Program-made: the position numbers and the translations under genes | The notes under the pieces: model-generated | Database searches by the model: none | What the model saw: the letters and a program-made list of their open reading frames with translations, nothing else | What the model was told of the DNA's origin: nothing | DNA from: Halogranum rubrum | Lineage (GTDB): Archaea > Halobacteriota > Halobacteria > Halobacteriales > Haloferacaceae | Direction: 5' to 3' | Assembly (NCBI RefSeq): GCF_900114455.1 | Contig: NZ_FOTC01000002.1 | Coordinates: 467,012 to 531,011 of the forward strand | DNA length: 64,000 nucleotides | Shown: positions 31,505-37,245 of the stretch, piece after piece | Layout: every line of letters begins with the position of its first letter | How positions within the stretch are numbered: the stretch's first letter is position 1

Positions 31505-31747
31505 TCAGCCGAGGAAGATGTCGATGACGTCGTTCGTCGAGCGGCCACGGTAGAGTTCCGAGTAGCCACAGTTCGTACAGGAGACGACGGTGAACTTGCG
31601 GTTCTGGATGTCGAACATCTTCGAGAGGCCGCCGCCCGTCGTCGCGATGGAGTCGACTTCTGTCTCGGTGTGTCCACACTTCGGACAGCCACGCTCGTCG
31701 CCGAAGTCAGTGCTATCGGTTCCGTTAGTGTTGGTTGGAGGGCACAT
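31505..31747 (-). CDS. Small zinc-ribbon protein
   Basis: An 80-residue protein with two knuckles, C21PKC24 and C57TNC60, separated by a stretch with a Gly triplet and TVVSC. This is the nucleic-acid-binding zinc-ribbon form (DUF2082-like: GCPKCGHTE ... FTVVSCTNCGYSELYRG). A partner and function are unknown. It converges with dapE. Confidence 0.8.
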   Translation of the reverse strand: MCPPTNTNGTDSTDFGDERGCPKCGHTETEVDSIATTGGGLSKMFDIQNRKFTVVSCTNCGYSELYRGRSTNDVIDIFLG

Positions 31748-31792: not shown

Positions 31793-32854
31793 TCAGATCG
31801 ACCGCGAGTCGTCCGGCCTCGTGTCGTTCCACGCCGACCCATCCGCTCCGTGCGGGTAGTACACGCGCCCGTCGCTACCGCCGTCGCGCGTCCCGTGGAG
31901 CGTCAAGAAGACCCACAGCGCGAGCGGTGAGAACGCTGCCGCCAACAGGCCGCCGCCGAGCAGTTGTGCGCCGCTCACGGGTGGGAGTCCCGCGGGTGCG
32001 GCGTCGCCGACGAGGAGTGCCCCCTTCATGCCCATCGCGGCGTGCGGTTCGCAGGCGTACTTGACCACGCCGCGTTCGGTGGCGACGTACTCGAAGGCGT
32101 AACCGGCGTCGCCGCTCATGTCGCTGGCGAAGGACCCGTCGCTGGCGACGACGTTGTGGTAGCCACCCTGTCCGGTCCACTCCCAGCGGACCGTCGTCCC
32201 AGGGTCGACCTGCACGGCGGCCGGTTCGAAGCCGAACGCCCCACCGTTGCCAGTCGCACCGACTTCCACGGTCACGACGTCCTCGCCGCGTCTGTCGACG
32301 GTTCCGGCGAAGTTGTCGACGGTGTCGAACCAGTCGTCGTAGACCGCGGCGGGGTCGTTCTCGGTACTCCCCGCGACGGTGCTGGCCTCGACGCCGGGAA
32401 CCTCGCCCACGACGACGACGCCCTTCATCCCCATCGCGGCGTGCGGTTCGCAGGCGTACTTGACGACACCCTCGGTGTCGGCGACGTACTCGAACGTCTC
32501 ACCCTTCTCGCTCAGGAGTTCGCTGGCGAAACTGCCGTCGGCCGCAGCGACGTTGTGGACGCCGCCCTCGCCGGTCCAGACCCACCGGACCGTCGTTCCA
32601 GGGTCGACCTGCACCGCGGCCGGGCCGAACCCGAACGCGCCGCCGTTGGCGTTAGTGCCGACTTCGACGAGCACCGAGGCCTTCCCACGGGCGTCGACGA
32701 CGCCGTCGTAGTTGTCGACGGTGTCGAGCCAACCGTCGAACGTCTGTGTTCCTGTCTCTTGCGCGGCAACTGTTCCGACCGTCGGTCCCGCCGCGACAGC
32801 GAGACCGGCGGCCGCACCCGCCCGGAGGAAACTGCGTCTACTGACGTCGCTCAT
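31793..32854 (-). CDS. Membrane-anchored twin halocyanin (blue copper protein)
   Basis: A 353-residue exported electron carrier. A Tat signal (SRRSFLRAG) is followed by two plastocyanin-like domains of about 115 residues. Each keeps the type-1 copper ligands: H100, C135, H138, M143 in the first and H233, C268, H271, M276 in the second (YACEPHAAMGM in both). A C-terminal helix (about 296-318) anchors it, with a short acidic tail inside. Its ATG overlaps the stop of the multicopper oxidase gene by 4 bases, so the two are probably electron partners. Two linked copper sites in one chain suggest an electron wire. Confidence 0.88.
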   Translation of the reverse strand: MSDVSRRSFLRAGAAAGLAVAAGPTVGTVAAQETGTQTFDGWLDTVDNYDGVVDARGKASVLVEVGTNANGGAFGFGPAAVQVDPGTTVRWVWTGEGGVHNVAAADGSFASELLSEKGETFEYVADTEGVVKYACEPHAAMGMKGVVVVGEVPGVEASTVAGSTENDPAAVYDDWFDTVDNFAGTVDRRGEDVVTVEVGATGNGGAFGFEPAAVQVDPGTTVRWEWTGQGGYHNVVASDGSFASDMSGDAGYAFEYVATERGVVKYACEPHAAMGMKGALLVGDAAPAGLPPVSGAQLLGGGLLAAAFSPLALWVFLTLHGTRDGGSDGRVYYPHGADGSAWNDTRPDDSRSI

Positions 32855-33999
32855 AGCTCGTACCCCGCGTAGTCCATCACCTTCCGGAAGATGTCGGAGT
32901 CCATCGCCTCGGTGTAGACGGTGGCAGTGAACATCCCGCCGGGGTAGGAGTTGCCGTTGCGGACGTGGTCAACCTTGTGGCAGTGCATCGGGTAGATGCC
33001 CGGGTCGGCGTCGGCGACGAACTCGATGGTGTAGCGCTCGGCGGGACCGATGTTCACCACGTCCTGCAGGTACTGGAGCGGTTCGGGCATCGGGCTTCCA
33101 TCTTTCTCGACGATTTTGAACCGGTGGTTGTGCGTGTGTATCGGGTGGCTCATGAACCCCGCGTTGACGAGGTGGATGCGGACCGTGTCACCCGAGTCGA
33201 CGATGACCGGCGACCCCATCTCGGGGTGTAGTGTGTACGGGGCCGAACGGCCGTTGATGGTGAACACGTCGCCCATGCGGTCGGTGAGCGAGTACTTCAC
33301 GTTCTCGCCGCCGTACTGCCGTGAGAGCCGGGAGTCCCACTCCTTGACCGTCATGAAGTACTCCTTGTCGGCCTCTTCGTAGCCTACGGGGTCGACCCGG
33401 AGGATGCCGTACATCCCCATGTCCATGTGGAACGGGGTGTTGAAGTGGCAGTGATAGAGGTGCGTTCCGGCGACGTTCGCGGGAACCGTGTAGGTGTGTT
33501 TCTCACCCGGCATGACTGTGATGCCCGTCGTCGTGGGGACGCCGTCGTTCATCCACGACTTGCGCACGCCGTGGAAGTGCAGCGTGTGCGGGTGCATGCT
33601 GTCGGAGTTGTCGAGCGTAATCTTCAGTTCAGTCCCTTCGGTGCACCGGAGGACCGGGCCGGGGACGGACGGCGTCCCATCGTTCGCTTGGAACGCCCAC
33701 ACGACGGGGAGCGTGATGGGGCCGTTCATCGCCTCGCCGGGGTGGACTTCGTGGCGAGCGTGGACCGTGCGAAGCGTCACTTCGCCGCCGAGTTCGTCGA
33801 GGTCGACGACTTCCGGCGGGCCGGTGAGCGGGAGGTCTGCGGCCTGTGTCGAGAGTGCCGCGCCGTTCGACGAAGCCTGTTGCGCCATCGGGGCCTGCAT
33901 ACAGCCAGCGACGGCGACGGCACCGGTCGCACCGGTCGCCTTGAGGAAGTCACGTCGAGAGATGCCGGTTCCGGGAGCGCCGATTCTGTCACTGTTCAT
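32851..33999 (-). CDS. Two-domain multicopper oxidase, Tat lipoprotein
   Basis: A 382-residue secreted oxidase. Tat motif SRRDFLK and lipobox AVAGC33 predict a membrane lipoprotein. The trinuclear-cluster ligands are complete: H141/H143 and H183/H185 in domain 1, H288/H290 and H339/H341 in domain 2. Type-1 copper ligands occur in both domains: H136, C184, H191, M196 in domain 1; H285, C340, H345 in domain 2 (the axial position is not Met). That matches the rare type A two-domain oxidases. The HCH patterns argue against a standard NirK nitrite reductase, although the two families are related. The ATG at 33999 is used because the Tat signal then starts correctly. Confidence 0.82.
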   Translation of the reverse strand: MNSDRIGAPGTGISRRDFLKATGATGAVAVAGCMQAPMAQQASSNGAALSTQAADLPLTGPPEVVDLDELGGEVTLRTVHARHEVHPGEAMNGPITLPVVWAFQANDGTPSVPGPVLRCTEGTELKITLDNSDSMHPHTLHFHGVRKSWMNDGVPTTTGITVMPGEKHTYTVPANVAGTHLYHCHFNTPFHMDMGMYGILRVDPVGYEEADKEYFMTVKEWDSRLSRQYGGENVKYSLTDRMGDVFTINGRSAPYTLHPEMGSPVIVDSGDTVRIHLVNAGFMSHPIHTHNHRFKIVEKDGSPMPEPLQYLQDVVNIGPAERYTIEFVADADPGIYPMHCHKVDHVRNGNSYPGGMFTATVYTEAMDSDIFRKVMDYAGYEL

Positions 34000-35499: not shown

Positions 35500-35667
35500 G
35501 TCCAGTGCTCCCGGCGGTGACCGCAAAAGCGTGTCGATGGTGAAAGACACTTCTGTGTATATCTCACCCGTCTTCCGCCGACTGTTTCCGAGTATGTGGG
35601 CACGAAAGTGTATACAACCGCTGTCGCAACCGCAACTGTTTTTCTCCCGCGGCCGGGTCACTCACAC

Positions 35668-37245
35668 ATGCTCAAGATCGCCGGTCTCGCGAGCAACCGT
35701 GGCCGCAACCTGCTGCACATCGCCGACCACGCCCCCGGTGGGGCGAAACTGAGTGTCGTCCTCGCGAACGAGGAGGGCGCGCCGGTCCTCGAAGGTGCCT
35801 CAGAGCGCGGCATCCCGACAGAGGTCGTGACACGCGGCGACGACGAGTCCCGCGAGGAACACGAACGACGCGTGCTCGACCGTCTCGACAGCTACGACTT
35901 CGACATCGTCTGTCTCGACGGCTACATGCGCGTGCTCACCGAGGAGTTCGTCGATACCGCGCCGACGACGCTCAACGTCCACCCTTCCCTCCTTCCTTCG
36001 TTCCCCGGGATGGACGCCCACGAACAGGTGCTCGACGCCGGCGTACGGATGACTGGCTGTACGGTCCACGTCGTCGACGAGGAAGTCGACGGCGGTCCCA
36101 TCGTCACGCAGGAGGCTGTCCCAGTCTACGAAGACGACGACGAAGAGAGCCTCAAACAGCGCGTCCTCAACGAAGCGGAGTTCACCGCCTACCCGCGTGC
36201 GATTCGTTGGTTCGCCGAGGACCGCGTGACCGTCGAAGATGACACGGTCCACGTCGACGGCGACGAGGGCGGCGACTTCCCGGACCGCCGACTCGTCTCG
36301 AACGACCTCGAAGCGTCGCTCCGCTACGGCGAGAACCCGCATCAAGACGCCGCCGTCTACGTCGACGCCGCCTGCGACGAGGCGAGCGTCGTCCACGCCG
36401 ACCAGTTGAACGAGGGCGCGAAGGCACTCTCGTACAACAACTACAACGACGCCGACGGCGCACTGAACCTCATCAAGGAGTTCGACGAACCGGCCGCCGC
36501 CGTCATCAAACACACCAACCCTGCTGGCTGTGCCACGGCCGACAGTCTCGCCGACGCCTACGAGAAGGCACTCTCGACGGACCCGATGAGTGCATTCGGG
36601 GGCATCGTCGCGCTCAACCGCGAGTGCGACGCCGCCACCGCCGAGCAAGTCGTCGACTCGTTCAAGGAAGTCGTCGTCGCGCCAGGCTACACCGACGCCG
36701 CGCTCGACGTCCTCACCGAGAAGAAGAACCTGCGCGTGCTCGACGTCGGAGGACTGGGCGAGATAACGGAGCGATTCACCGAGAAGCCAATCGTCGGCGG
36801 ACGGTTGGTGCAGGAACGCGACCGCTGGTCTCCGGAACTCGACGACCTGGAAGTCGTCACCGAGCGTGAACCCAGCGAGGAAGAACTGGAGACGATGCTG
36901 TTCTCGTGGAAGGTGCTGAAACACGTGAAGTCCAACGGCATCCTGTTCGCGAAGGGAACCGAGACAGTCGGCGTCGGGATGGGACAGGTCTCCCGCGTCG
37001 ACGCCGTCCGACTCGCCGCGATGAAGGCCGACGAACACGCCGAAGGGAAAGGATCGGACGGCGCAGTGATGGCTTCGGACGCCTTCTTCCCGTTCCCCGA
37101 CGGCATCGAAGAGGCCGCAGAGGCCGGAATCACGGCCGTCGTCCAACCCGGTGGCTCCGTCAACGACGAGGACGTCATCGCCGCCGCCGACGAACACGAC
37201 ATCGCGATGGCGTTCACCGGCCGGCGATGCTTCCGCCACGACTGA
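35668..37245 (+). CDS. purNH: Fused GAR formyltransferase / AICAR formyltransferase
   Basis: A 525-residue fusion. Residues 1-185 are PurN (LKIAGLASNRGRNL, with catalytic Asn and His in TLNVHPSLLPSFPG). From about 210 onward it is the AICAR-transformylase half of PurH (RYGENPHQDAAVY, KALSYNNYNDADGA, IKHTNPAGCA with its Lys-His, and GMGQVSRVDA). The IMP cyclohydrolase (MGS-like) domain normally at the N-terminus of PurH is absent, so ring closure must be by another protein such as PurO, as in other haloarchaea. The ATG at 35668 lies about 27 bases after a T-rich element. Confidence 0.92.
   Translation: MLKIAGLASNRGRNLLHIADHAPGGAKLSVVLANEEGAPVLEGASERGIPTEVVTRGDDESREEHERRVLDRLDSYDFDIVCLDGYMRVLTEEFVDTAPTTLNVHPSLLPSFPGMDAHEQVLDAGVRMTGCTVHVVDEEVDGGPIVTQEAVPVYEDDDEESLKQRVLNEAEFTAYPRAIRWFAEDRVTVEDDTVHVDGDEGGDFPDRRLVSNDLEASLRYGENPHQDAAVYVDAACDEASVVHADQLNEGAKALSYNNYNDADGALNLIKEFDEPAAAVIKHTNPAGCATADSLADAYEKALSTDPMSAFGGIVALNRECDAATAEQVVDSFKEVVVAPGYTDAALDVLTEKKNLRVLDVGGLGEITERFTEKPIVGGRLVQERDRWSPELDDLEVVTEREPSEEELETMLFSWKVLKHVKSNGILFAKGTETVGVGMGQVSRVDAVRLAAMKADEHAEGKGSDGAVMASDAFFPFPDGIEEAAEAGITAVVQPGGSVNDEDVIAAADEHDIAMAFTGRRCFRHD

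What the first reader, a model, noticed from the sequence alone, without database searches (positions are those of the whole stretch)
31793..33999. Two-domain multicopper oxidase with type-1 copper ligands in both domains, paired with a twin halocyanin
Domain 1 has H136, C184, H191, M196 and domain 2 has H285, C340, H345 in addition to all eight trinuclear-cluster histidines. This is the rarely characterised type A arrangement, thought close to the ancestor of laccases and nitrite reductases. The next gene overlaps by 4 bases and codes for two more type-1 sites in one membrane-anchored chain.
Basis: partly seen in the sequence, partly recalled or inferred. Interest (0 to 1): 0.58.

Follow-up and report, generated by a model that had tools for sequence, protein, structure and literature searches.

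The report
Haloarchaeal oxidase with two blue coppers
This salt-loving archaeon carries a copper enzyme predicted to have two electron-entry (blue copper) sites where its studied relatives have one, encoded next to a membrane-bound copper protein that probably feeds it electrons; the enzyme type is known from sequences, and its real job is still open.

Summary
The gene at 32851-33999 (-) encodes a two-domain multicopper oxidase (382 aa) with all eight trinuclear histidines and a type-1 copper ligand set in each domain. Ligands H138/C184/H191/M196 and H285/C340/H345/M356 are invariant in 86 of 86 aligned members; the only other conserved cysteine is a lipobox (C33). The next gene overlaps by four bases and encodes a twin halocyanin with a C-terminal membrane helix.

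By sequence this is a type A two-domain oxidase, a class already reported from haloarchaea (PMC3192119). I found no solved or characterised member.

What the tools add: members are probable Tat lipoproteins; a halocyanin cistron lies directly downstream in 25 of 80 loci; 39 of 131 copies lie within 10 kb of qNor or NirK; a published denitrification promoter motif (up to 2 mismatches) sits upstream in 41 of 80 loci. The window's own copy lacks the motif, and its genome gave no NarG, NirK, qNor or NosZ match over cut-off.

Best reading: a membrane-anchored, halocyanin-fed oxygen reductase belonging, in much of the family, to an oxygen-limitation regulon. Its supposed ancestral position is unresolved.

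The parts
32851..33999 (-). Type A two-domain multicopper oxidase, 382 aa, probable Tat-exported lipoprotein
   Evidence: (Cu-oxidase_3, Cu-oxidase_2, TAT_signal)
33901..33903 (-). Lipobox cysteine C33 (AGC after the SRRDFLK Tat signal)
   Evidence: C33 invariant in 86 of 86 rows; R15, R16, G32 invariant
33586..33588 (-).
   Evidence: invariant 81 of 81, position 136 is H in only 19 of 81; aligned with 3g5w and 2zwn
33448..33450 (-). C184, domain-1 type-1 copper ligand, within the HCH motif (H183, H185 trinuclear)
33412..33429 (-). H191 to M196, remaining domain-1 type-1 ligands
33145..33147 (-). H285, domain-2 type-1 copper ligand; H288 and H290 follow (trinuclear)
32980..32982 (-). C340, domain-2 type-1 copper ligand, within HCH (H339, H341 trinuclear); Asp here in type C 3g5w and 2zwn
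32932..32967 (-). H345 to M356, remaining domain-2 type-1 ligands on a long loop (HxxNG...YPGGM)
   Evidence: invariant H345 and M356; type B relatives have HCHxxxHxTNN...GGGGL
31793..32854 (-). Twin halocyanin, 353 aa, Tat signal, two copper domains, C-terminal membrane helix; overlaps the oxidase gene by 4 bases
   Evidence: (TIGR03102, two stretches)
32426..32557 (-). Halocyanin domain 1 copper ligands H100, C135, H138, M143
32027..32158 (-). Halocyanin domain 2 copper ligands H233, C268, H271, M276
31892..31975 (-). Predicted C-terminal membrane helix of the halocyanin (about residues 294-321)
   Evidence: hydropathy, best 19-residue window 1.86 at residues 298-299

Best explanation
The pair is an electron-transfer module on the outer face of the membrane. 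The oxidase is exported by Tat and held by a lipid on C33 (inferred from motifs). Like other two-domain oxidases it should be a trimer in which each trinuclear site lies between domain 1 of one chain and domain 2 of the next (inferred from family knowledge). Because both domains keep HCH, each trinuclear site would be wired by two Cys-His bridges to two type-1 coppers. The domain-1 copper, placed as in nitrite reductase and type C enzymes, would take electrons from a protein donor; the domain-2 copper, which in type B enzymes faces a central tunnel (PMC13151041), would be reached only by small molecules. The donor is the membrane-anchored halocyanin from the same probable transcript. The product is water from oxygen. 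In much of the family expression is tied to the oxygen-limitation and denitrification regulon; in the window's organism it is not visibly so. Shown by computation: ligands, anchor motifs, gene order, gene neighbourhood, promoter motif. Inferred: trimer, co-transcription, electron direction, oxygen as acceptor.
For: Both ligand sets and all eight trinuclear histidines are invariant. Closest solved chains are the two-domain oxidases 3g5w and 2zwn by sequence and by fold (Z 27.8, rmsd 2.7 and 2.6, 274 and 272 residues). Invariant Tat arginines and lipobox cysteine. A halocyanin cistron directly downstream on the same strand in 25 of 80 loci, a label that needs 6 changes on the family tree, gains and losses together. 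Halocyanin is the haloarchaeal one-electron carrier, with a halocyanin/oxidase-subunit gene fusion known (PMC8305020, passages). Denitrification motif at -115 to -70 with up to 2 mismatches in 41 of 80 loci against 3.25% of background windows. The window genome gave no match over cut-off for NirK, qNor, NarG or NosZ, so oxygen is the plainest acceptor there.
Against: No experiment on any member was found. 36 of 131 copies lie within 10 kb of qNor and 15 of 131 within 10 kb of NirK, and one copy sits in a metal-resistance island, so other roles are open. 55 of 80 loci have no halocyanin cistron directly downstream. AlphaFold confidence is low on the two type-1 loops (188-190 and 344-354 under 50; mean pLDDT 73.7), and I had no coordinates to measure geometry.
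Confidence: 0.45

Rival explanations
1. Nitrogen-oxide enzyme: the type A oxidase takes part in nitrite or nitric oxide turnover, either as electron relay to NirK and qNor or as an NO oxidase making nitrite, as ceruloplasmin does (recalled).
For: 39 of 131 copies lie within 10 kb of qNor or NirK, in 7 genera; qNor lies directly downstream on the same strand at 165-340 bases in nine copies of genus g19 and in G039. Co-occurrence with qNor in 75 of 106 genomes against 18 of 64 without the oxidase, with NirK 66 of 106 against 14 of 64 (not corrected for kinship). Exact denitrification motif upstream in 12 of 80 loci, and upstream of qNor as positive control. The H. mediterranei multicopper oxidase E6P09_RS00725 was proposed in print for electron transfer in nitrite/NO reduction (PMC10062603, passage); that it is type A is inferred from gene order only.
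Against: The window genome has no NirK, qNor, NarG or NosZ over cut-off; 24 of 106 oxidase-bearing genomes have neither qNor nor NirK. The full trinuclear histidine set is kept, unlike NirK. The window copy has no motif upstream.
Confidence: 0.25
2. Cuprous oxidase for copper homeostasis: it oxidises Cu(I) at the cell surface, and halocyanin is a copper or electron acceptor.
For: The H. marismortui pNG600 copy sits among heavy-metal and copper P-type ATPases and a cation diffusion transporter. Cu(I) is favoured without oxygen (general knowledge), which would fit the regulon.
Against: No metal-transport gene was seen beside the window pair among the ORFs; no methionine-rich insert such as CueO has (recalled) stands out in the sequence.
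Confidence: 0.15
3. Type C enzyme in practice: only the domain-1 site holds type-1 copper and the domain-2 set is vestigial.
For: Closest solved relatives are type C with Asp at position 340; H285 and H345 are also present in those two chains, so they are not diagnostic alone; the domain-2 loop is poorly predicted.
Against: C340 is kept in 86 of 86 rows and is one of only three conserved cysteines; M356 is also invariant; type B relatives carry the same loop with Cys.
Confidence: 0.1

Closest known systems
Type A two-domain multicopper oxidases of haloarchaea (Nakamura class; genes listed by Ausec 2011, PMC3192119)
   Same: Two cupredoxin domains, type-1 ligands in both, eight trinuclear histidines, haloarchaeal hosts
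   Different: Nothing that separates it; this is another member, here described with a lipoprotein motif and a halocyanin neighbour
Type C two-domain oxidases 3g5w (Nitrosomonas BCO) and 2zwn (metagenome laccase); type assignment recalled
   Same: Domain-1 type-1 set, eight trinuclear histidines, long loop in domain 2; best sequence and fold match
   Different: Asp in place of C340, so no type-1 cysteine in domain 2
Type B-like two-domain oxidases (L152-L154, L156, L123); CjMCO in PMC13151041
   Same: Domain-2 HCHxxxH...GGGGL set and trinuclear histidines
   Different: T, S and Q replace the domain-1 ligands
Copper nitrite reductase NirK (TIGR02376)
   Same: Two-domain fold, domain-1 type-1 set
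   Different: The haloarchaeal NirK rows have Asp at 141 and HCA at 183-185 and lack the second HCH; P0001 scores 50.4 bits against a cut-off of 296.3
Halocyanin domain TIGR03102
   Same: Two domains, whole protein over the cut-off (250.1 bits against 93.8)
   Different: Twin, with a C-terminal membrane helix; the characterised Natronomonas halocyanin was reported with a lipid anchor (title of a reference in PMC8305020)

Membership tests
Type A two-domain multicopper oxidase | Two cupredoxin domains and no third | tested here: met
   Cu-oxidase_3 at 111-204 and Cu-oxidase_2 at 257-349 in 382 aa; fold aligned over 70-381 with two-domain chains
Type A two-domain multicopper oxidase | Type-1 ligands H, C, H, M in domain 1 | tested here: met
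   H138, C184, H191, M196, invariant, aligned with the type C set; by sequence only
Type A two-domain multicopper oxidase | Type-1 ligands in domain 2 | tested here: met
   H285, C340, H345, M356, invariant, aligned with the type B-like set; by sequence only
Type A two-domain multicopper oxidase | Eight trinuclear histidines | tested here: met
   H141, H143, H183, H185, H288, H290, H339, H341 invariant
Type A two-domain multicopper oxidase | Homotrimer with interfacial trinuclear site and five coppers per chain | not testable with these tools
   no multimer model, no metal analysis
Type C two-domain multicopper oxidase | No type-1 cysteine in domain 2 | tested here: not met
   C340 present; Asp in 3g5w and 2zwn
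Type B two-domain multicopper oxidase | No type-1 cysteine in domain 1 | tested here: not met
   C184 present
Copper nitrite reductase NirK | Score over the TIGR02376 cut-off | tested here: not met
   50.4 bits against 296.3
Copper nitrite reductase NirK | Type-2 copper alone, no type-3 histidine set | tested here: not met
   all eight trinuclear histidines present
Halocyanin (TIGR03102) | Halocyanin domain over the curated cut-off | tested here: met
   250.1 bits, two stretches
Haloarchaeal denitrification regulon | Motif CGAAYATDKTYG in the promoter of the window's gene | tested here: not met
   no match with up to 1 mismatch in -250 to +30; best has 4 mismatches at -115 to -70

The most novel reading that the evidence does not exclude
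Type A enzymes are haem-free respiratory oxidases of the haloarchaeal oxygen-limitation regulon: one trinuclear site served by two inlets, an outer blue copper fed by halocyanin and an inner, tunnel-facing one fed by a small molecule such as NO or Cu(I), so that one enzyme both drains the respiratory chain and clears a toxic by-product of denitrification.
Probability: 0.2. Interest if true: 0.75.

Novelty: new member of a known kind. Interest (0 to 1): 0.48.

Why it matters
Type A is the least studied of the three two-domain classes, and the PDB copy searched holds no relative closer than type C enzymes at about 32% identity. The invariance of both type-1 sets across 86 rows argues that the double wiring is functional and not a relic. 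The promoter motif and the qNor/NirK neighbourhood give a testable physiological setting, oxygen limitation, for a class usually filed under laccases. The window's organism, with no denitrification enzymes found, is a natural case for separating an oxygen role from a nitrogen-oxide role.

Tried and rejected
Linking the H. mediterranei operons E6P09_18045 (log2FC 7.66) and E6P09_05580 (3.23), induced in denitrification (PMC11218638, passages), to the type A family: not possible. The records tried for that plasmid were not held, and the first 50 kb of the two plasmid records of that strain that were held do not show those genes; they may be NirK-like. So I do not use them as evidence. Rooting or ordering types A, B, C and NirK: the tree of 46 proteins has weak backbone branches, long-branch warnings and no root. 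NirK inside the 80 loci: none found with one query; wider distances came. qNor was not found in the window genome. Paper searches for a characterised type A enzyme gave none (listings, with passages of the papers cited); only openly licensed papers are held, and Nakamura 2003, Lawton 2009 and Komori 2009 were not read (recalled, or cited through PMC3192119 and PMC13151041).

Sampling limits: the 80 loci were the best 80 of 166 and were picked with two peptide patterns, one of which covers H191-M196; the 30 sequences of A1 (29 from the plain protein search plus the window's own) show the same invariance. The Fisher tests ignore kinship, and four of its 131 copies are partial hits. In one search eight rows of multi-domain or poorly aligned proteins were left out. 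Motif positions are counted from the aligned first residue, not from a mapped start. Control genes are automatic ORF choices; 22 of 791 had the motif with up to 1 mismatch, of which 9 were qNor, 5 halocyanin, 4 regulators (divergent from the oxidase gene, so probably the same site) and 4 others.

Full report
What is there. The gene at 32851-33999 on the minus strand encodes a 382-residue protein with Pfam Cu-oxidase_3 and Cu-oxidase_2 domains and a Tat signal. The gene after it, 31793-32854, overlaps by four bases and encodes 353 residues with two halocyanin domains and a C-terminal hydrophobic helix. The window lies in a haloarchaeal genome of 4.57 Mb in 17 contigs; the nearest named relative is Halogranum amylolyticum, whose oxidase is 90% identical.

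Ligands. I aligned the window protein with 80 relatives and then added five divergent ones. The trinuclear histidines 141, 143, 183, 185, 288, 290, 339 and 341 are invariant in all 86 rows. So are H138, C184, H191 and M196 in domain 1, and H285, C340, H345 and M356 in domain 2. Only three cysteine columns are conserved in the 86 rows, 33, 184 and 340: the lipobox and the two type-1 cysteines. The pattern search that fetched the 80 loci favoured H191-M196, but the 30 sequences of A1, 29 of them from a plain protein search, show the same.

Comparison with types B and C. The closest solved chains are 3g5w and 2zwn, by sequence and by fold (Z 27.8); both have the domain-1 set and Asp at position 340. 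Bacterial relatives from plasmids (Nostoc, Deinococcus wulumuqiensis, Rhizobium, Roseateles, Variovorax) have the reverse: T, S and Q replace the domain-1 ligands, while domain 2 keeps HCHxxxH on a loop ending in GGGGL. The window protein joins the two sets. That is type A as PMC13151041 (passages) defines it. The AlphaFold model is moderate (mean pLDDT 73.7) and poor on the type-1 loops; I could not measure distances.

Already known. Ausec et al. 2011 (PMC3192119, passages) report type A genes only from Archaea, naming Halogeometricum, Haloterrigena, Haloarcula and Halobacterium, and credit Nakamura for the class. In 392 genomes of the phylum, all strong matches were in the same order; the one match outside it was weak. 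In the window's family 106 of 170 genomes carry a strong match.

Anchors. R15, R16, G32 and C33 are invariant, so the oxidase is most likely a Tat-exported lipoprotein; the halocyanin has a Tat-like start (just under the Pfam cut-off) and a C-terminal helix. Both would sit on the outer face of the membrane. These are motif inferences.

Operon. A halocyanin cistron starts within -4 to +94 bases of the oxidase stop in 25 of 80 loci. Of these 25, 22 are twin and 3 single; in 15 of the 22 twins the second domain has lost copper ligands, and in 7 both sets are intact, as in the window (read by eye). On the family tree the operon label needs six changes. Halocyanin replaces cytochrome c as the haloarchaeal one-electron carrier (PMC8305020, passages).

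Denitrification link in the family. In the 170 family genomes, 75 of 106 with the oxidase have qNor over cut-off against 18 of 64 without, and 66 of 106 have NirK against 14 of 64 (from; kinship not corrected). Of 131 copies, 36 lie within 10 kb of qNor (6 genera), 15 within 10 kb of NirK (6 genera), and 39 within 10 kb of either (7 genera); by simple arithmetic (131 x 21 kb / 3.6 Mb) under one would be expected for each marker. In genus g19 and in G039 qNor mostly follows directly on the same strand. Among the 80 named loci, 11 have qNor within 6 kb: seven Haloferax, and one each of Haloarcula, Halomicroarcula, Halobacterium and Halobellus.

Promoter motif. The motif CGAAYATDKTYG is published for haloarchaeal denitrification promoters (PMC11218638, PMC10062603, passages). 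It is found exactly in 12 of 80 loci at -82 to -104, and with up to two mismatches at -115 to -70 in 41 of 80 loci, against 3.25% of 10159 background windows. It also sits 78 bases upstream of qNor, a positive control; of 791 other genes 22 had it with up to one mismatch, 18 of them qNor, halocyanin or regulator genes. PMC10062603 already notes the motif upstream of the H. mediterranei oxidase E6P09_RS00725 and proposes a role in nitrite/NO electron transfer. Gene order in Haloferax loci suggests this is the type A gene; I did not test its sequence.

Results against a denitrification role here. The window's gene has no such motif, nor does its nearest relative L033. Its genome gave no match over cut-off for NirK, qNor, NarG or NosZ. 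Across the family, 24 of 106 oxidase-bearing genomes have neither qNor nor NirK. One relative, on H. marismortui pNG600, lies in a metal-resistance island. So the family is not tied to one setting, and the plainest acceptor in this organism is oxygen.

Ancestry. In a tree of 46 proteins with eight type-1 ligand columns removed, the haloarchaeal type A proteins form one clade (99/99), but their place among types B, C and NirK rests on weak or long branches and the tree has no root. The ancestor claim is neither supported nor refuted.

Mechanism proposed. Halocyanin gives electrons to the domain-1 copper; the domain-2 copper, tunnel-facing in type B enzymes (PMC13151041), serves small molecules or acts as an electron reservoir; the trinuclear site reduces oxygen. 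The anatomy is supported by sequence; the electron path and the acceptor are inferred.

Noticed in passing
   Followed up: partly
window 35596-37245 (+): Fusion of a formyl transferase domain (PurN-like) with an AICARFT/IMPCHase domain, in the purine pathway.
   Followed up: partly
window 31505-31747 (-): An 80-aa zinc-ribbon-like ORF (CPKCG, CTNCG) directly after the halocyanin; a similar 84-aa ORF follows the pair in L035.
   Followed up: no
L034, L037, L039, L040, L042-L044, L046, L047, L052, L067, L072, L073, L095, L104, genes downstream of the oxidase: In 15 of 22 twin halocyanins next to the oxidase the second domain has lost copper ligands, usually with tyrosine in place of the histidine after the cysteine: decay of one copper site.
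   Followed up: partly
L050, L056, L057, L061, L065, L074, L076, L077, L097, L102, L105: A conserved protein of about 437 aa (cluster 8) near the oxidase has no Pfam match; from its sequence it looks like a multi-pass membrane protein.
   Followed up: no
H. mediterranei operons E6P09_18045-18055 and E6P09_05580-05590 (PMC11218638): Multicopper oxidase plus membrane protein plus plastocyanin/halocyanin operons are induced in denitrification (log2FC up to 7.66); which oxidase family they belong to is unresolved.
   Followed up: partly
L124, L147, L148, L151, L155 (bacterial plasmids): Two-domain oxidases with HAH in domain 2 lie directly before a metal transporter gene, in three of the five with a metal-type regulator gene upstream: a bacterial oxidase-transporter pair.
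   Followed up: no
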